The notes: a model not told the origin generated them from the letters alone. Numbered from the stretch's first letter, positions 3,465-35,203 are shown. The stretch is 64,000 bases of DNA from Pyrinomonadaceae bacterium (GCA_026129865.1 JAHCHG010000001.1:124001-188000), one strand, 5' to 3'. Program-made: numbers and translations.

Positions 3465-3725
3465 AAACCGAAGAAGAAAGAAACAGCCGCGCAGTGCTGC
3501 GTCCGCGCGAGTAAATCCACACGAAAGGCGCAATCATACTTACTTCATAACGCACAAATGTACAAACGATGCACCGCTTTTCTGCTTAATTATCGGGAAA
3601 AACAGTAGCTGAGAACCGTTTTGTGACCTATGCAAAACGATTTCAGCTTCAGTAATTTCAAAGTAAATTTCGGATGGAGTTGAATTTCCACTTTTCCGGA
3701 GGATTGATAATTAAACGGTTCGAAT

Positions 3726-21902: not shown

Positions 21903-23774
21903 ATGAAAAAAGGCTGCGAAGGAAAAGACATCTCAACAAAAAAACGAAAAGACCTTCCCGTTTTGGGCAATGCACCGCCGAACGAAGGCGGAATTCGCGA
22001 TTCTCGAACGGCGAAATGGCGCGCAGGCGTGCTCATAACGTTGAATTTGCTGATGATCATTCACATCGTTCAATGGGCTATGACGGGAAGCACGGTGTCA
22101 CCGATCGAACCTTCGGAATCGATGTACACCCTGCAGGACGGTGCGGTCAACGCCGGATTCATATTCTTTACAGCGGCGATCATCGCCACTTTGATATTCG
22201 GCAGATTTGTTTGCGGATGGGCTTGTCATATCGTTGCACTTCAGGATCTTTGCGGGTGGTTTTTGAAAAAGATCGGTCTTACCCCAAAACCGTTTCGTTC
22301 GCGCCTTTTGATATTTGTCCCGTTGATAGTCGCGCTTTATATGTTCGTTTATCCGACGGTCGCCAGATTTTTCTTAAAACCCGCGGCGGAACCGATTTTT
22401 CCGCAGTTTACGAATCATATAATCACAACCGATTTTTGGGCGACCTTTCCGCCTGCTTATGTCGCGATTCCCTTTTTATTTATTTGCGGATTCATGACCG
22501 TTTATTTCCTCGGTCAGAAAGGTTTCTGCACTTATGCCTGTCCGTACGGCGGATTTTTCGCCGTTGCAGATAAGGTCGCTCCGGGGAAAATTCGCGTTAC
22601 CGACGCGTGCAATCAATGCGGGCACTGCACCGCCGTCTGCACTTCAAACGTTTTGGTTCATGCCGAGGTGAAAGAATACGGAATGGTCGTCGATCAGGGC
22701 TGCATGAAATGCATGGACTGCGTCAGCGTCTGCCCGAACGACGCGCTTTATTTCGGATTCGGCAAACCGGCGGTCGGAACGAAACAGACGATCAAGAAAA
22801 ATTATTCGCTCACGCTTGCGGAAGACATCGGCGCGGCGGTCGTTTTCGCCGCTGCCTTTTTTGCAGTCTGGGACGCGTATCAACTTGTTCCGATGCTGAT
22901 GGCGCTCGGTGTTGCGTCCGTTTCGACATTTTTAGCCGTAAAGACTTGGAAAACGCTTCGTTCGAAAGATGCCGCGTTTTATAAATATAAACTGAGATCA
23001 GCCGGGCGAATTCAGAATGCAGGCTGGGCGTTTTTGGCGTTTTCCGTCGCATGGATCGGGCTCAATTTTCACAGCGGATTTGTCAGATATTATGAAGCCG
23101 GCGGAAATGCCGCGTATGAAAGAGTTTTGATCCCGGACGAACTCGCGCTTGCCGAAGCCGATCCGAAACGCTGGATCACGCCGGAAATGCAAACCGAGAT
23201 CGACCGCGGCATCGATCGGTACGAACGCGCTTTCGATTTCGCCCTTTTTACAAATGTCCACGCGCTTCCGAAATACGCCTGGCTCGAGTATCTCTCGGGC
23301 GACTCGACGCGCGCGGTCGAACTGCTCGAGCGGGCGGCAAAAAATCAATCCGGACAGCAGCGCGCGCTCAGTCTTTATTACCGCGGAGCGATCCTAAACC
23401 GGATAGATCGTCCGAAGGAAGCCCTGACCGATCTCGAAACCGCTGCCGCGGAGGCGCCCGATCTGGTTCTCGCCCACGAGGAAAAAGGCGAGGCTTTCTG
23501 GCGGCTCGGTCGCAAGCTCGAAGCCGTCGGCGCATGGCGCGACGCGCTTAAACTAAATCCCGCGATGCCGCTCGCAAACAATTTCCTTTCCGGCGCCGCG
23601 GAAAATATGGACCAGCAGGAAACAGCCCGGCTATACAAAACCGTCGCGGACAAATACACGCCAAACGATCCGTATTTTCACTGGGTTTTGGCAAAACGTC
23701 TTGAAAATCTGGGAATGAAACAGCTAGCGGATGCGCATTTCGAAAAATCTTCGAATCTGGCGCCGACGAAATAA
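21903..23774 (+). CDS. Polyferredoxin membrane protein (NapH/CcoG-like) fused to TPR domain
   Basis: 623 residues. About four N-terminal helices with the CGWACHI motif (C104, C108), then CTYACPYG (C209, C213) and two ferredoxin clusters (C236-C239-C242-C246 and C267-C270-C273-C277). Two more helices follow, and the C-terminal ~180 residues are TPR-like (for example ALSLYYRGAILNRIDRPKEA). The membrane/ferredoxin half resembles NapH, NosR C-terminal and CcoG proteins, which pass electrons from quinol or assist metal-enzyme assembly. The TPR half faces a partner I cannot name. The start ATG has no strong SD. The stop is 1 bp before an insertion-sequence remnant, so its original downstream DNA has been lost. 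Confidence 0.85.
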   Translation: MKKGCEGKDISTKKRKDLPVLGNAPPNEGGIRDSRTAKWRAGVLITLNLLMIIHIVQWAMTGSTVSPIEPSESMYTLQDGAVNAGFIFFTAAIIATLIFGRFVCGWACHIVALQDLCGWFLKKIGLTPKPFRSRLLIFVPLIVALYMFVYPTVARFFLKPAAEPIFPQFTNHIITTDFWATFPPAYVAIPFLFICGFMTVYFLGQKGFCTYACPYGGFFAVADKVAPGKIRVTDACNQCGHCTAVCTSNVLVHAEVKEYGMVVDQGCMKCMDCVSVCPNDALYFGFGKPAVGTKQTIKKNYSLTLAEDIGAAVVFAAAFFAVWDAYQLVPMLMALGVASVSTFLAVKTWKTLRSKDAAFYKYKLRSAGRIQNAGWAFLAFSVAWIGLNFHSGFVRYYEAGGNAAYERVLIPDELALAEADPKRWITPEMQTEIDRGIDRYERAFDFALFTNVHALPKYAWLEYLSGDSTRAVELLERAAKNQSGQQRALSLYYRGAILNRIDRPKEALTDLETAAAEAPDLVLAHEEKGEAFWRLGRKLEAVGAWRDALKLNPAMPLANNFLSGAAENMDQQETARLYKTVADKYTPNDPYFHWVLAKRLENLGMKQLADAHFEKSSNLAPTK

Positions 23775-23775
23775 G

Positions 23776-24121
23776 CTCGAAAAGATCAGCCCGTTTTGCT
23801 GCAATCCAAAAAATTCAATCTTACCGATTGGCAGCACCTTTTAGGAATCATCGCCGCCGGTTACGCCAAACAGCTGGGAGAAAAACAGAGAACTGCAAAA
23901 ATCTAACCGGGCTCAACCGCCCCGAAAACAAACGGGCTCAACTGCCCGCAAAACAATCCATCAAATCACTTCAGGGTGAGGCTAAATCTAAACCAACCTT
24001 CCGCCCTTAAACTAAATCTCCGCCCAAAATCCTACATCAAAACCACCAATTCCCAAATCTACCCGAAAATAATTCAACCTTTTTTCCACTTCCCGCACCT
24101 TTTCACTTTACCTTTCTATCA
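23776..24121 (+). mobile_element. 3' remnant of an IS110-family element (second copy)
   Basis: This 346-bp segment aligns base for base with 32136-32482 of the intact element. It contains the last ~130 bp of the transposase gene, with frameshifting differences, and the whole right non-coding end, including CGGGCTCAACTGCCCG and the terminal CTTTCTATCA. The left 1.55 kb is missing and the remnant abuts the stop codon of the polyferredoxin gene, so a deletion joined them. Its right end abuts an Rhs reading frame at 24122. Confidence 0.92.
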
Positions 24122-24694
24122 ATAGTTGTAATTTGCCGTCGCGGTTGAAGCCAGACGGTTGAATTGTCCGGTTTGATATGTATAGCTTGTTGAAAGATGA
24201 GAACTCGTTCGATTGCCGACCGTATCGTAATTATAATTTTCATTCTGATTATTCGATGCCGTGACGGTTTTCAAACGGTCAATCGAATCGTAACCGAAAC
24301 TTCTGGTGTTGGTCGGCTCGACTATCTGATTGATCTGCGAAGCCGGATTATAAGCGTATTGCCGATCAAACAGCGTGGCGGTCATGGAAACATCTTTCAA
24401 TCGTTTCAACCGGCTCATCCCGTCATATTCGTAAGTCGTCGTGATATTGTTCGGAAGTGTTTTCGAGATCAAACGGTCGGCATTGTCATAACCGAAGTTT
24501 ATCTGTGTGCTGTCGTTTGAATCAACGATATTCGTCAATCTATCGGCATCGTCAAAGTTGTAAACCGCATACATCGCGCCGTCGAATTTCAGACGTTTCT
24601 GATTTACGGTCGAGGTCAGTTCGTATTCGTAAGCGAGAATATGACTGAAAACGTCGGTCGTCGAAGTTATCCGGTTATCATAAATAGAATTCAT
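24119..24694 (-). pseudogene. Rhs core fragment cut by the IS110 remnant
   Basis: 191 codons of YD-repeat sequence (for example YEYDGMSRLKRLKDV). It parallels 29561-30133 of the main Rhs gene closely at DNA level. It runs into the IS remnant right after a tyrosine codon, and the TGA supplied by the IS ends it. The ATG at 24694 overlaps the stop of the membrane-anchored gene upstream by 4 bp, which looks like a recombination product rather than a true start: homology to the main Rhs gene begins only a few codons later. The fragment lacks the export region, the core end and a toxin tip. Confidence 0.85.
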
Positions 24695-28402: not shown

Positions 28403-30583
28403 TCAATTCAATTTACTTAAGAAATCATATGCCGCATTCAAGTACTTTCGACGATTGGGGTTCTTTTCGGAAATCCCTCTTCTAAAATTAAAAGGCGCAT
28501 TAGAATACTTATTGTATAAAAGTTCCTCAAGCCCTCGTTGCTCGGCATAATCATCAGTTCTGTATTTAGGTCTAAAATCAAACTTTCCAAGTTCTGGATC
28601 CCGCGCATGTTCCGCCATTCGCCGTTCCAAGTCGTTAGTTCTGCCACCTCGCATAACCTTACCCGTGTTCGAATCAACTAAAACATAAACTCCTCCTCGT
28701 GGGAGGAACTTTTCAGCTCTTTTTCCAACCTTCGCTGCGCCGGCAGCCGCTCCAAAGAATGGTGCCATTGATGCCGCACTCAAAGCGGCATCGCAATAAT
28801 TTCCTCTGCCTACACTCACTAATCCATCAACCGCATCAGCCGGTTCGCCAAGAATAGGCACCATCCCTATCCCGGCGAGTATCATTTGGAGGTCATCCAT
28901 CATTTCCACGAAACCGCGCCTGCTCGGTTTCGGGCTTTTGAGCCTTTCCATCATTGCGTATTCATCCAACCCAAACGGATCCGAGAAATTCAATGAATTA
29001 TTCCCCACATAAGCAAACAAATTGACATAACCGCCCGCAAATCCAATCGGGTCTTCGGATGTAAATCTGCCGATCTGCGCGTCATAAAATCTCGCCCGGT
29101 AATAATGCAGTCCTGTAAAGTTGTCGTATTCCCGACCTGTGAACTGATATCGAGTCGAAAGATTCGTTGTGGCAGTACCGAATGAATCGTATGCGGTTTG
29201 TTCGGTGAGATTTCCTGATGAATCGGCTAATCCGTTCGTGCTTCCCAAATGATCGGCAAGAAAATACTTCGCCGTGCCATTTAACGAAATCTTCAATTTG
29301 TCGTCTATTCCAAGCCCGTTTTGATATTTGGTTAAGACTCCGTTGTTGTCGTCAACCAGAACGTCTTGCCCGTCATAGATGAACTTGGTGTTTTCCTTTC
29401 CGCCTCTGAAATATCTCTGCACTCGTCTGCCGAGCGCGTCATATTTGTAACGAACCGTTTCTTTTCTCGTCGAAGCCGATGTCAAACGGTTCTCGTAATC
29501 CCAAGTGAATCGCCAGAAGTTTTTACCCTCGGATTTAGTTACCAGATTGCCGTTCGCATCATAGTTGTAATTTGCCGTTGCCGTTGAAGCGAGCCGATTG
29601 AACTGTCCGGTTTGATATGCGTAGCTTGCGCTTTTGTGTGATGATGTTCGATTGCCGACATTATCAAACACATAATTTTCATTCGGCTGATTCGTGTTTG
29701 AATAAGTCGCCGAAGTCAAACGATCAATATTGTCATAACCGAAATTTCTCGTCTGCGAAGGTTCGGTAATCTGTGAAATTTGATTTGCCGGATTGTAAGC
29801 GTATTGCCGATCAAAAAGCGTGGCGGTCGAAGAAACGTCTTTGAGTCGCTTTAACCTCGACATTCCATCATATTCGTAAGTCGTTGTAACGCCGTTCGGT
29901 AAAACTTTAGAAGTCAATCTGTCGGCATTATCATAACCGAAATTTATCTGCGAGCTGTCGTTTGAATCAACGATATTCGCCAGCCGGTCGGCATCGTCAA
30001 AGTTATAAACCGCATACATCGCGCCGTCGAATTTCAGCCGTTGTTGGTTGACGCTCGGTGTGTGTTCATATTCATAATTTATCAAATGTCCGAAAACATC
30101 GGTCGTCGAAGTTATCCGGTGGCGGTTATCATAATCGAGCGAAACCGTTCCCGCTTCGTTCGCCGCCGTTTTCAAACGCGAGATGTCGTCGTAGGTATAA
30201 ACCGCTTCCAGATTCGGTGTTGTTGACGAAACTTCGCCGTAGATAATTTTTTTCAAACGGTTCAGATTATCGTATTCATAGTTCGTGATGCGCCCCGCGT
30301 AATCGGTGCGTTTCGTGCGGTTGCCGACCGCATCGTATTCGTAACTCATCACCGCTCCGGCGCGGGTCTGCGTTAATTGTCTGCCGAGCGCGTCATAGCT
30401 GAAATTGTAAACCTGATTGAGCGCGTCCTTGACCTCGATTGTCTGAAAACGCTGATTATATTTGACGGTCGTCGTTTCCAGTTCGGCATTCGTTACGGTG
30501 TTTGTCCGGTTCGCGTCGTCGTAGGCGTAAACCGTTTCACGATTTGCCGAATCAATAAATTTCTTTAGTCTGCCGACCGTATC
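28403..30583 (-). pseudogene. 3' half of the Rhs gene, ending in a GIY-YIG-like toxin tip
   Basis: These 726 codons continue the Rhs gene that starts at 35203; the IS110 element separates the halves at 30584. The region contains many YD repeats (YEYDAVGNR, YKYDALGRR and others), then the conserved core end (RYQFTGREYDNFTGLHYYRA, SEDPIGFAGG, NLFAYVGNN) and the DPFGL boundary. The ~190-residue tip has a pre-toxin part and a final domain GGVYVLVDSNTGKVMRGG, TNDLERRMAEH, then a Glu in AEQRGLEELLYNKY. These are the spacing and residues of a GIY-YIG-type nuclease. The half has no evident start of its own and lacks the export signal. Confidence 0.85.
28998..29205. repeat. Rhs core-end repeat shared with orphan cassette 4
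   Basis: This 208-bp segment matches 25568-25775 (offset 3430). 110 bp in the middle (29031-29140 and 25601-25710) are identical by eye. Such stretches allow homologous exchange of toxin tips. Confidence 0.9.
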
Positions 30584-30619
30584 GTAAATGGTATGAAAGG
30601 TAAAAGGGTTGAGCAGACC

Positions 30620-30860
30620 TCCCATGAATCGTTATGATTCTGTTTAGAATTAGGTTCGGGTTTGCCTGCTCAGCCTTGGTTCGCAACAATCAGTGAGCCT
30701 GCTTGAGGGGGCGGTTCGGTTATACGTATAGGCGTTTGGAGCCTGCTGTCGTAAATGAACCACCTTTTTCGCACGCACCATTTTGAGCTATCAAGCTCGG
30801 ATCAATAGTTGTTGCTCGCTTTGCGCGAATTTAATTCATTCAAAAATACGTTTTTAAGGA
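30620..30860 (+). ncRNA. Candidate bridge RNA region of the IS110 element
   Basis: IS110-family recombinases are known to use a structured 'bridge' (seeker) RNA encoded in a non-coding end of the element. This left end is long enough and has several small hairpins (GAATC-GTTAT-GATTC at 30625-30639; GAGCT-ATCA-AGCTC at 30785-30798). ATCAATAGTTGT at 30801-30812 is identical to the right junction of the second copy (24118-24129). The exact RNA ends are unknown. In IS1111-type relatives the RNA lies at the other end, so the right non-coding region is the alternative. Confidence 0.35.
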
Positions 30861-30869
30861 GATTTTCAG

Positions 30870-32267
30870 ATGAATCAAACGTCTCTAAAATTACCAGATT
30901 TTGCTGATCACGACAATCTTTTTTATGGTCTCGATCTGGCGAAAAAAGATTCGCAGCTGGCGGTTTTGGCTGCCGACGGCACTCAGCTCGCGAATTTTCG
31001 TTTTCCTTCCCGGCGTGAAAACTTTCTTTATCTTGCAAAAAGCTTAAAAAGCTCCGACACGATCGCGCTCGAGGTTTCGACCTCGGCAAACGCCGTGATG
31101 AGTGTTTTCAAACTCAATTCAGCGGCTCGATCTCTGCTTTCGAATCCGTTGCAGACCAAAGTGATCTCGCAAACGCGCTGCAAGACCGACAAGGTCGACG
31201 CCCGTGTTTTGGCTGATCTCGCCCGTGTCGATTATCTCCCGACCGTCTGGTTTCCCGATCAGGACACGCTTCGCCTGCGTCATCTTTTCACCGACCGCGA
31301 ACTGCTTGTCAAACATCGGACGCAGTTTAAGAATCAGATCCATTCCATTTTGCATCGCTCTCTGATCAAATATGAAACCGCTTCTTTGTTTACCAAACAA
31401 GGGCTTGATTGGCTGAATAACCTTCTGCTTTCCAATGAGTTAGATTCATTTGAAAAAGACCGCGCCGGTTTTCTTCTCGCCGAGATCAAACGTCAGGATA
31501 TTTTGATCGAAGACCTCGACGCGACCATCGCGGCGTTTATCCAATCCAATGCGGGATTCGCCCATCAGCTCAATCTGCTGCTTTCGATCCCCGGTATTTC
31601 CCTGGCTTCCGGCGGCGCGATACTTGCCGCCATCGGCGACGTTTCAAGATTTTCTTCAAAGAAAAAACTCGCTTCCTATTTCGGTCTGACGCCGCGGGTC
31701 AAACAATCCGGCGACAAACTCCATCTCGGCAGAATCTCAAAACAAGGCAACTCTTACGGCAGATTTATGGCGGTCGAAGCCGCCGAACATCTTCGCAAAG
31801 TCCCCGTTTATGCACGCCTTTTTCAAAAAATCAAAAAGAAAAAGAATCACAACGTCGCCAAGGTCGCCATCGCCCGCAAACTCATCGAACTCGTCTGGAT
31901 ACTTTTGACCAGAAACGAAGAGTTTATCTATTCGCGCCCGAAACGCTGCGATGATAAACGCTCTCTCGTCAAACAACTTGCAAAACGCAAAGCCAATCTC
32001 AAACTCGATAAAAAACCGACCAACCGCATTCTTTACGGCACAAACCTGCGCGGAACAATGATCCGCAATGAGATCCAAAAACGCGCCAACAACGAAGCCG
32101 CCCGCATCGCCGATCTGCTCGAACTCGGCAAAAAACTCGAAAAGATCAGCCCGTCCGGCTTTAATCCCAAAAAACCCAACTTCACCGATTGGCAGCGCCT
32201 TTTAGAGATCATCGCCGAAAATTACGCCAAACAGCTGGGAGAAAAACAGAGAGCCGCAAAAATCTAA
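30870..32267 (+). CDS. IS110-family transposase (DEDD recombinase)
   Basis: 465 residues. The N-terminal RuvC-like DEDD domain begins with FYGLDLAKKDSQLAVL, then IALEVSTSANAV and the typical CKTDKVDARVLADLARVDY. The C-terminal Tnp/Transposase_20 domain has LSIPGISLASGGAILAAIGD, ASYFGLTPRVKQSGDK and GRISKQGNSYGR. A basic C-terminal extension of ~130 residues follows. AAGGAG precedes the ATG. The frame is intact, so the element may be active. It catalyses RNA-guided, serine-dependent strand exchange through a circular intermediate. Confidence 0.95.
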   Translation: MNQTSLKLPDFADHDNLFYGLDLAKKDSQLAVLAADGTQLANFRFPSRRENFLYLAKSLKSSDTIALEVSTSANAVMSVFKLNSAARSLLSNPLQTKVISQTRCKTDKVDARVLADLARVDYLPTVWFPDQDTLRLRHLFTDRELLVKHRTQFKNQIHSILHRSLIKYETASLFTKQGLDWLNNLLLSNELDSFEKDRAGFLLAEIKRQDILIEDLDATIAAFIQSNAGFAHQLNLLLSIPGISLASGGAILAAIGDVSRFSSKKKLASYFGLTPRVKQSGDKLHLGRISKQGNSYGRFMAVEAAEHLRKVPVYARLFQKIKKKKNHNVAKVAIARKLIELVWILLTRNEEFIYSRPKRCDDKRSLVKQLAKRKANLKLDKKPTNRILYGTNLRGTMIRNEIQKRANNEAARIADLLELGKKLEKISPSGFNPKKPNFTDWQRLLEIIAENYAKQLGEKQRAAKI

Positions 32268-32479
32268 CCGGGCTCAACCGCCCCGAAAACAAACGGGCTC
32301 AACTGCCCGCAAAACAATCCATCAAATCACTTCAGGGTGAGGCTAAATCTAAAAACAACCTCCGCCCTAAAACTAAATCTCCGCCCAAAATCCTACATCA
32401 AAACCACCAATTCCCAAATCTACTCGAAAATAATTCAACCTTTTTTCCACTTCCCGCACCTTTTCACTTTACCTTTCTA

Positions 32480-35203
32480 TCAATATTCATATTTTTCAAC
32501 GAGCCGCGCCGCGCCGATTTCGGCAGGCGGATACTGAACTTCCTTGAGCCGGTCGAAATTGTCGGGAATGTAATTGGTCTGATTGCCGAGCGCATCCTTT
32601 TGCCAGATCAGATTCGACATCAGATCGTAACCGAATTCTCTTGAATGACTGAGCGGATCGGTGATCTTTTTCAAACGATACGCCGAATCGAATTCATAAA
32701 CGGTAATTTTCCCGCGCTCGTCCGTCATGCTTTCGAGCAGTCGGCGAATGTCGTATTTGTATGTGATCTTATCCGCGTTCGGATAAACAAGCTCGATTTT
32801 TCTCTGCGTGTCGTCGAAATAATTGTAGGTCGTTATATGATTGAGAGCGTTTGTAACGGTCTTCGTTCTGCCGCGAGCGTCGTATGTAAAATTCGTCTTT
32901 TTGCCGTTGGCATCTTCGATTTCCTGCAACAGTCCCGAACTCGCAAACCATTTGAATTTGGTAATTTTGTCCCGCGCATCCTTGATCGAATCGGGCAAGC
33001 CCTTATTATTCGTCGCCGGATATTCGACGGTCGTTATATTATCGAGCGCGTCTTTTGTTGTCAGCAGATTCCCGTTAGCATCGTATGTATTCGTCCAAAT
33101 CCCGTTCATCCGGTCTTTGTAAGTCAAAACCTGTCCGAACGAATTGTATGTAAAAGTAGAAGTTCCCCAAACGTCGGTCATCGTCAACGGATTTCCGTTT
33201 GCATCATATGTATAAATGGTCTGCCGTCCGAGCGCGTCGGTCTTTTTCGTCAAATTTAACTGGTTATCATATTCATACGTCGTTATTTCCGAGCCGCTTC
33301 CGCAATTACAGTTCCCTTCTGTCTTCGTCAAGACATTGCGACCTTTTGACTTATCGAAGAAATATTTGGTTACCCTGCCGAGCCCGTCCGTTACGGTTGT
33401 ATATGAAGGATTGGAATAGTCGAGAGTATATTTTTCCGTGCCGCCGTGTTTTTCAGACGTATATGCGCGTCCGCTGGGGTCGTATTGATGAGTTTCCAAT
33501 ATATTGTCCAGCGCGTCGCGCACGGTTCTTAGAAATGTGTTCGAACCGACGTTTGCATATTCATATCGTTTTTTCGATCCATCGCTGAACGACACCTCAT
33601 TCAAAAGGGTAGTCCCCGAAAAGTAAGAATAGCTCGCAATGTTTCCCAGCGCATCGCTGATCTGATAAACGAGCCCTCCAATAGAAATAATCGAAATCGT
33701 TCTCCCGAACGGATCGATTACGCTTTCTAGTACCCCATTGGCATTGTAGCTTATCGATGTTCTATTGCCGTTTCGATCTTCGAGCCATATTAACTTCCCG
33801 TTTGACCCGAATTGTCGTACACTGCCGTCTTTGTTAGTTAATAGGAACGTGTTATTAGATCCCTTAGATATCCAACCATGGAAATCACCAGTTACAGACT
33901 TAAATGATTGCGCCGTGTTCGTTCTGCCGAAATAAAGGGCTCGCCCGTCCGAACTCTGATATCTCAAAGAGAATTGATTAATCTCTTGAATTTGTTCGTC
34001 AAACAAGCTCGACCATCCAAACCCGAAGACGCCCGCAGTTTGATTTGCACTGTTGTACGTTCGCGAGAAATTTATCGATGCGGCGAGCCCGGGAAGACGA
34101 TAGTCAACCTCGTTGATAAACATATTCCCGTTTGAAACGTTAATTGGTTCGCCTACCGAAAGACCGCACGATGGATTACCGAAATTCTGATCCGAAAAAG
34201 CGCCAAAGCTCACGACATTTGAGGAGCGCTGTCGATTCACTCGGTTCGCAGTAACATAGAAATAGCTGATCTGGTTAAACGGCGAAATCCAGGGATCCTC
34301 ATAAGAAACTATCTCGGTCTGCGCACCAGGTTGACCCACATTATTCCAGGCATTCCACGTGTTATGAGCCGTACTAAACGTAAAAACCGTGTAACCCATC
34401 GCTCCCTCAACTCTATTCCACGAGAGCTGCAATTTATTGTTTGGGCTGATTGAGGCGGAAAGCGTCGGCTCACCAATATCTCTGGTGGTAGCGGAAACCG
34501 TTGGAGAACTTTTACACCGAGACCCATCGCAAACCTTCAGGTAAAATTGATAAGTTGCAAATGTGGACATAGGGGCGTTATATCCCCAGTATTTCGTTTC
34601 AAAACTCACTTGCTGACCGGGAGCCGTACTGTATTGAATCGGTAGCCAGGTACTGCCGCCGTCAGCCGAGCCGTAAACTGTATGAAGTATACTGGCGCCA
34701 GCAACACCTACCCACGATTGATGTATCTTTTCGTATTCAGTTCCGGTTGAGACCGAGAGAGAAGGCGTATCGAAATCGCGGGTAGTTACCGAAATTGAGT
34801 TCGAATTTGTTGGCACTCCGCAAATTGCTGTTGAAACATAAAAAGTATAGGTATGAAAAGTTTGAAGTGGCGAATTGTAGCCCCATACTCCAACTGTCAA
34901 GTTGACTTGTTGCCCTTCGCTGACAGAATACTGCACAACGCCCCAGGTTGCGCCACCATCAGGAGAACCGTGAACGGTATATATTCCGTTAGAGCCGGAA
35001 ACTCCAGTCCAGCTCTGCGTAACTTCACGAAACCCGGGTCCTGAAACAACGGTCAGCTGTGGCGGTCCGCCCGGATTGCACTGTTGTGCATTCACGTCGT
35101 AATTGCCGAAAATAAGAATAGAAAGTAGAAAAACAAGGAAAACTGAACTTTTAAACCGGTCGCTCGGAATAGGAATGCGACAAAGCAAAGAAACTTGTCT
35201 CAT
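32480..35203 (-). pseudogene. 5' half of the Rhs gene: exported, FN3-like repeats, DUF6531 and YD repeats
   Basis: 907 codons of an Rhs protein that would be about 1633 residues if joined to 28403-30583. It has a signal peptide (cleavage near NVNAQQ or DVNAQQ) and three fibronectin-III-like repeats (~45-340) with the phrase SPDGGATW / SADGGSTW. A DUF6531-type segment (NPSCGLSVGEPINVSNGNMF) follows, then YD repeats. The frame ends at a TGA contributed by the IS right end. The signal peptide suggests Sec export and surface display rather than loading on a type VI spike; no VgrG, Hcp, PAAR or EagR gene is nearby. No good Shine-Dalgarno sequence is seen at the ATG. Confidence 0.88.

What the first reader, a model, noticed from the sequence alone, without database searches (positions are those of the whole stretch)
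30584..32482. IS110 element inserted at a YD-repeat codon string; a second copy hit the paralogous site
Removing 30584-32482 restores one Rhs frame exactly (codons for YEY joined to DTVGRL). The second copy's right end (24121/24122) enters a YxY tyrosine codon in the same way. Both insertions lie between TAT and GAT of the Y-D repeat signature, on the same strand. The uninterrupted equivalent of the second site survives at 29560/29561 in the main Rhs gene, which gives a natural empty-site control. An RNA-guided recombinase that recognises the YD consensus would always find targets in any Rhs gene, so this looks like a lineage adapted to Rhs genes.
Basis: partly seen in the sequence, partly recalled or inferred. 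Interest (0 to 1): 0.75.

Follow-up and report, generated by a model that had tools for sequence, protein, structure and literature searches.

The report
RNA-guided IS targeting Rhs YD codons
A bacterial jumping gene carries a small guide RNA that matches the tyrosine-x-tyrosine-aspartate codons repeated through giant Rhs genes, and relatives in five bacterial phyla sit at exactly those codons, so a mobile element appears to have made a repeated protein motif its landing site.

Summary
An intact IS110-family element (1,899 bp, 465-aa DEDD recombinase) interrupts an Rhs gene at a TA core inside the Tyr codon of Y-E-Y-D. A 350-bp 3' remnant of a second copy lies at Y-N-Y in a paralogue.

Relatives from Acidobacteriota, Myxococcota (Sorangium), Planctomycetota, Chloroflexota and Spirochaetota were collected. 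At 27 of 27 resolved left ends the core adjoins TAYGAY on the opposite strand, and 26 of these lie in Rhs-like genes. Clan members with other guides are never at TAYGAY.

Upstream of the recombinase gene is a conserved two-loop RNA with covarying helices, a predicted bridge RNA/seekRNA. Its target loop reads TAYNNNTA and GUCGUA, together Y-x-Y-D. Guide and target covary across the clan (44 pairs, 0 of 5,000 permutations). Guide G sits at both third codon positions, and all four TAYGAY spellings are hit, as G-T wobble would allow.

Refinements: the target is a codon string, not Rhs genes as such (two hits lie in an ECF sigma gene and an ATPase gene). Guide order and subterminal repeats are IS1111-like although the RNA lies upstream. 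This is a new variant of a known kind; nothing has been tested at the bench.

The parts
30587..32485 (+). IS110-family element with one copy of the TA core (1,899 bp)
   Evidence: Left-end alignment over 27 relatives; right end set by the subterminal repeat, the donor-guide match and Sorangium copy-to-copy comparison
30585..30586 (.). left TA core; adjoins rc(TACGAT) = YD of the Rhs gene
32484..32485 (.). right TA core; followed by rc(TATGAA) = Y-E of Y-E-Y
30595..30604 (+). left subterminal inverted repeat GAAAGGTAAA
   Evidence: sequence
32468..32477 (-). right subterminal inverted repeat (TTTACCTTTC on the + strand)
   Evidence: sequence
30702..30816 (+). predicted bridge RNA / seekRNA: two stem-loops, each with an internal loop
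   Evidence: covariance model built from 15 relatives; E = 2e-18 in this genome (training member)
30721..30728 (+). 5' side of target loop, TATACGTA: predicted right-target guide (Y-x-Y)
30748..30753 (+). 3' side of target loop, GTCGTA: predicted left-target guide (anti-Y-D)
30777..30783 (+). 5' side of donor loop, ACCATTT, complementary to left end AAATGGT
   Evidence: sequence
30801..30807 (+). 3' side of donor loop, ATCAATA, same as right end ATCAA[TA]
   Evidence: sequence
30870..32267 (+). IS110 recombinase, 465 aa, with a C-terminal extension of about 110 aa beyond the IS621-like part
   Evidence: Pfam DEDD_Tnp_IS110 and Transposase_20; NF033542 214.9 bits, cutoff 140; fold matches IS621, E = 9e-17
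28403..30584 (-). Rhs gene, C-terminal part; intact YD sites inside it
   Evidence: Pfam RHS_repeat
32486..35203 (-). Rhs gene, N-terminal part
   Evidence: Pfam RHS_repeat and DUF6531
23770..24124 (+). 3' remnant of a second copy, with its right core at 24123-24124
   Evidence: (92% identity)
24125..24694 (-). paralogous Rhs fragment to the right of the remnant (Y-N-Y at the junction)
   Evidence: Pfam RHS_repeat
29558..29569 (-). intact paralogous target site TACAACTATGAT

Best explanation
This is a bridge-RNA-guided insertion sequence whose target guides spell the Y-x-Y-D codon string of Rhs/YD repeats. Shown by sequence: an intact recombinase gene of the IS110 family; a TA core; subterminal inverted repeats; a conserved two-loop RNA encoded upstream of the gene; and invariant insertion at TAYGAY across the branch. 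Inferred: the RNA is made and bound by the recombinase; its 3' target guide (GUCGUA) pairs with the Y-D codons and its 5' target guide (UAYNNNUA or UUYNNNUA) with the complement of the preceding Y/F-x-Y; the donor loop pairs with the joined element ends; and the circular element recombines into the TA of the Tyr codon, always antisense to the Rhs gene. The G at both third-codon positions of the guide would let one RNA read TAC/TAT and GAC/GAT by G-T wobble, so every Rhs gene offers many landing sites.
For: 27 of 27 resolved left ends abut TAYGAY, 26 in Rhs-like coding context, one orientation, all four synonymous spellings (Rhs identity checked by profiles on a subset). Right flanks are Y/F-x-Y at 17 of the 21 resolved right ends. 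The RNA has 98% of cells paired, 9 pairs changed on both sides and a clear drop when slid, and was found in the left end of essentially every clan member tested. Left guide against target: 44 distinct pairs, mean 4.45 of 5 against 2.89 +/- 0.16, 0 of 5,000 permutations. Right guide: 4.94 of 6 against 4.24 +/- 0.19, P = 0.0002, 17 flanks. The two lineages whose guide spells F-x-Y sit at F-x-Y, and the two with AUCGUA sit at GAT. Guide G faces target G 58, A 20, C 3, T 0 times.
Against: No RNA, circle or transposition has been observed. In the window the x codon does not match (guide ACG, target GAA), so its right-guide match is 4 of 6 plus core. In four Blastocatellia relatives (L020, L021, L022, L159) the right flank does not fit Y-x-Y, so only half the target is supported there. 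Several copies are related (Sorangium) or share flanks (L025/L040, L149/L157), so 27 is about 25 distinct sites. The Rhs label is not one clean clade on the tree (6 changes). Right ends were placed partly with help from the donor-guide match. Donor-guide matches were read by eye and are imperfect in some lineages.
Confidence: 0.87

Rival explanations
1. The site is chosen by protein-DNA contacts of this recombinase branch, and the RNA resemblance is incidental.
For: The TA core and flank are near constant within the branch, which protein contacts could also give.
Against: Guide and target change together across the clan, at fixed RNA positions, for unrelated targets such as CTTTTTTA, CGTGGTA, GTTGTTA and ACTGATA. 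IS621 and IS1111 relatives are shown to be RNA-guided (PMC11208160, PMC11187229).
Confidence: 0.05
2. The Rhs association is a by-product: the element reads a short TAYGAY-type sequence, and Rhs genes merely hold most such sites in these genomes. There is no adaptation to Rhs genes as hosts.
For: Two members with the same guide sit at TAYGAY in an ECF sigma gene (L022/L008) and an ATPase-like gene (L049). Rhs genes are dense in the motif (12 against 1.9 expected in the window).
Against: Guides extend to Y/F-x-Y, matching the Rhs repeat over 14 nt in most lineages, and 26 of 28 known hits are in Rhs-like genes. This is a matter of emphasis rather than mechanism.
Confidence: 0.3
3. The copies in Rhs genes spread by homologous recombination between Rhs repeats, not by repeated transposition.
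For: Rhs loci recombine. Left-truncated copies with duplicated Rhs flanks exist (L035, L010; window 23770-24124).
Against: Near-identical elements (99.8%) sit at different Rhs sites with unrelated flanks and identical ends in one genome (L030/L043). Elements of 40-50% protein identity in different phyla share the same junction codon.
Confidence: 0.04

Closest known systems
IS621 / IS110 group with bridge RNA (PMC11208160, PMC11208158)
   Same: Fold and DEDD/serine recombinase, RNA encoded upstream of the gene, target loop then donor loop, dinucleotide core, scarless insertion
   Different: Core TA rather than CT; guide order is the other way round (5' side of the target loop pairs with the right-target top strand); clear 10-bp subterminal inverted repeats; C-terminal extension; targets coding repeats instead of REP elements
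IS1111 group with seekRNA (ISEc11, ISKpn4, ISPa11; PMC11187229)
   Same: Order of target matches (top-strand match 5' of bottom-strand match) and subterminal inverted repeats
   Different: Non-coding RNA region is upstream, not downstream, of the gene (the paper notes a few such exceptions); target is the Rhs YD repeat
ISEc21 (PMC11187229)
   Same: Precedent for targeting conserved protein-coding codons: those around the second catalytic D of IS3-family transposases
   Different: Different target gene, opposite guide order; no multi-phylum branch or codon-wobble pattern described in the text read

Membership tests
IS110 family (DEDD recombinase) | DEDD_Tnp_IS110 plus Transposase_20 domains | tested here: met
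   Pfam E = 3.8e-21 and 4.6e-20; NF033542 214.9 bits, cutoff 140
IS110 family (DEDD recombinase) | RuvC-like DEDD acidic residues and Tnp-domain serine aligned with IS621 | tested here: met
   D22, E68, D107, D110 and the QSG serine align with or are near invariant; Foldseek to 8wt9 E = 8.9e-17
IS110 family (DEDD recombinase) | Non-coding RNA with separate target and donor loops | tested here: met
   Predicted from covariation only
IS110 family (DEDD recombinase) | RNA expressed and bound; circular intermediate | not testable with these tools
   needs bench work
IS110 group (IS621-like) | RNA region upstream of the gene | tested here: met
   30702-30816 precedes the gene at 30870
IS110 group (IS621-like) | 5' side of target loop pairs with the left-target bottom strand | tested here: not met
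   It is the 3' side that covaries with the left target
IS1111 group | Subterminal inverted repeats of about 7-17 bp | tested here: met
   10 bp in the window; TATGAACGTG-type in Sorangium
IS1111 group | Top-strand match lies 5' of bottom-strand match | tested here: met
IS1111 group | RNA region downstream of the gene | tested here: not met
   the conserved RNA is upstream
IS1111 group | Recombinase clusters with IS1111 references | not tested
   no reference IS1111 or IS110 proteins were placed in the tree

The most novel reading that the evidence does not exclude
The guide RNA has evolved to read a protein motif, not one DNA sequence. G at both third-codon positions makes one RNA recognise all synonymous Y-D spellings. 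The element is further fitted to life inside Rhs genes by keeping its left end open, antisense, in the Rhs frame (and, in Sorangium copies, the whole element), so that an interrupted Rhs gene can still be read.
Probability: 0.3. Interest if true: 0.8.

Novelty: new variant of a known kind. Interest (0 to 1): 0.62.

Why it matters
It shows what sets the target of an RNA-guided transposon lineage over long times: a repeated, conserved codon string that every Rhs-bearing genome supplies many times over. The wobble pattern predicts how bridge RNAs tolerate synonymous sites, which bears on their programming and off-targets. The IS1111-like guide order in an upstream RNA helps explain how the two IS110 groups are related. 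It also adds a mobile-element force acting on Rhs polymorphic-toxin genes.

Tried and rejected
A single-protein scan of genome contigs found nothing; an alignment query was needed. My first right end for L009/L020 (AACAA[TA]CTTATG) was dropped after the subterminal repeat and donor guide pointed to CATGAA[TA]TCAAG. A first tree placed L029, L045, L047 and L061 wrongly because they had been translated in the wrong frame; repeated. An antisense bridge RNA was considered: folding alone did not decide (window minus strand z = -3.2, plus strand -1.6), but three invariant G-U pairs and a GC/GU pair only work on the plus strand. L034 seemed to hold a circle junction, but the contig has a run of N there. 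Selection for full read-through of the recombinase antisense frame was not supported: the in-phase cases fit codon bias plus chance. Literature: no paper in the held library ties IS110 or IS1111 to Rhs YD repeats; a preprint or subscription paper could exist.

Full report
What is there. The window (an Acidobacteriota genome by its relatives, G000) carries an IS110-family element at 30587-32485, inside an Rhs gene read on the minus strand. The 465-aa product matches Pfam DEDD_Tnp_IS110 and Transposase_20 and NCBIfam NF033542 above cutoff; its predicted fold matches the IS621 and ISCro4 bridge recombinases (E = 9e-17), with an extra C-terminal stretch of about 110 residues at lower confidence. 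The Rhs halves on both sides are RHS_repeat proteins. The genome has this one full copy and one 350-bp 3' remnant at 23770-24124.

Exact borders. Aligning the left ends of relatives shows a shared TA followed by NNNGGTATGA, and comparison of near-identical Sorangium copies at different sites shows the right end as ...TTCATAGG[TA]. By the same logic the window cores are 30585-30586 and 32484-32485. The insertion point is therefore the TA within a Tyr codon. I read the frame of each flank separately and did not rebuild the uninterrupted gene, since Rhs genes can encode effectors.

Relatives. A whole-genome search of 195 relatives, an alignment-based scan of 84,980 species genomes, a phylum sample and covariance-model searches gave 27 insertions of this branch with a readable left end. 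In all 27 the core directly adjoins TAYGAY on the strand opposite to the recombinase gene: TACGAC, TACGAT, TATGAC and TATGAT all occur. Twenty-six read as YD followed by Rhs-like sequence; profile searches on a subset gave RHS_repeat, TEN_YD-shell or Rhs_assc_core, others were judged from their YD repeats. The exception, L022 (= L008), lies in an ECF sigma gene (Sig-70_X6, E = 3e-50). A further member with the same guide, L049, lies at TACGAC in an ATPase-like gene. Some sites are duplicates (L025/L040, L149/L157), leaving about 25 distinct sites. Hosts are Acidobacteriota, Sorangium (Myxococcota), Planctomycetota, Chloroflexota and a spirochaete. Clan members with other guides sit at other sites, a large set at GTTNGTA within what reads as '(T)N(A/P)IE(A/S)LN', the motif I know from IS256-type transposases (from memory, not tested); none of those is at TAYGAY.

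Right side. Where the right end is resolved the preceding codons are Y-x-Y or F-x-Y in 17 of 21. The four exceptions (L020, L021, L022, L159) are all Blastocatellia relatives of the window element; there the right flank is not a matching Rhs half. Deletion or rearrangement next to the element, or relaxed right-side recognition, could explain it; I cannot tell which.

The RNA. Upstream of every recombinase gene in the branch lies a conserved stretch of about 110 nt that folds into two stem-loops with internal loops. On 15 sequences, 98% of cells are paired, 9 of 21 pairs have changes on both sides, no shuffle reaches the observed covariation, and sliding partners by one column drops pairing to about 40%. 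A model built from these found the RNA in the left end of essentially every clan member tested, down to E = 1e-8. Invariant G-U pairs fix the strand as that of the recombinase gene.

Guides. The 5' side of the first loop reads TAYNNNTA or TTYNNNTA in all 15 branch members, that is Y/F-x-Y, and the 3' side reads GTCGTA (ATCGTA or GTTGTA in a few, GTCGTG in L022), the complement of Y-D. Across the clan the 3' side follows the left target: 44 distinct guide-target pairs score 4.45 of 5 against 2.89 +/- 0.16 when permuted, with none of 5,000 permutations as high. The 5' side follows the right target: 4.94 of 6 against 4.24 +/- 0.19, P = 0.0002, on the 17 Rhs right flanks. L028 and L029, whose guides spell F-x-Y, sit at F-x-Y; L026 and L151, with ATCGTA, sit at GAT. 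In the second loop, the 3' side (ATCAATA) equals the right end of the element and the 5' side (ACCATTT) is complementary to the left end; in other lineages these matches range from perfect to partial (by eye).

Wobble. Where the guide has G, targets have G 58, A 20, C 3 and T 0 times; A on that strand means guide G facing T. At the two third-codon positions of the Rhs branch every target is compatible (22 of 22 at each position). One guide can thus read all synonymous Y-D codons. Conservation of the Rhs protein also limits variation to these positions, so this shows compatibility, not selection for G.

Place among known systems. IS110-group RNAs lie upstream with the bottom-strand match first, IS1111-group RNAs downstream with the top-strand match first (PMC11187229; PMC11208160). 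This clan has the RNA upstream, but the IS1111 order and a 10-bp subterminal inverted repeat (GAAAGGTAAA). That paper notes a few IS1111 members with an upstream region. ISEc21 is a precedent for aiming at conserved codons. Neither paper, nor the cryo-EM paper, mentions Rhs or wobble.

Phylogeny. On a tree of 78 recombinases the Rhs label needs 6 changes (shuffled mean 16.4): one supported clade of window relatives and one mixed clade. Old ancestry with losses, or more than one origin, are both open. The tree is quick and has long branches.

Verdict. The element is best described as a bridge-RNA-guided insertion sequence reading the Y-x-Y-D codon string, a new target class and an unusual anatomical mix within a known family.

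Noticed in passing
Left ends of the Rhs-branch elements (loci): Antisense stop codons in the left end are scarce in the Rhs frame (19 against 33 and 30 in the other frames, about 38 expected), while clan members with other targets show no frame bias (64, 69, 72). Several Sorangium copies and L034 have no stop across essentially the whole element in the Rhs frame, and most Sorangium lengths are multiples of 3.
   Followed up: partly
L020, L021, L022, L159: Left flank is at YD codons but the right flank is not a matching Rhs half, hinting at deletion or rearrangement beside the element or relaxed right-side recognition.
   Followed up: partly
window 23770-24124; L035 about 3598-3616 and 5443; L010: Copies truncated at the left end with the right end intact recur in Rhs loci, in L035 and L010 with Rhs sequence repeated on both sides.
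   Followed up: partly
L051, L059, L061, L066, L069, L073 and others: A sister set of IS110 elements, mainly in Alphaproteobacteria and Actinomycetota, sits at GTTNGTA in a conserved TN(A/P)IE(A/S)LN coding motif, apparently a transposase gene: a second case of codon-motif targeting.
   Followed up: partly
L049:931-1287 and L022 left flank: Elements with the same GTCGTA guide inserted at TAYGAY in non-Rhs genes (XrtA/PEP-CTERM-type ATPase; ECF sigma factor).
   Followed up: yes
L025:1185-2201: The Rhs protein beyond the insertion ends in a Pfam ribonuclease domain (E = 6e-17), a likely polymorphic-toxin tip.
   Followed up: no
L034:593-1837: A group II intron reverse transcriptase ORF runs into the short Rhs fragment next to the element.
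   Followed up: no
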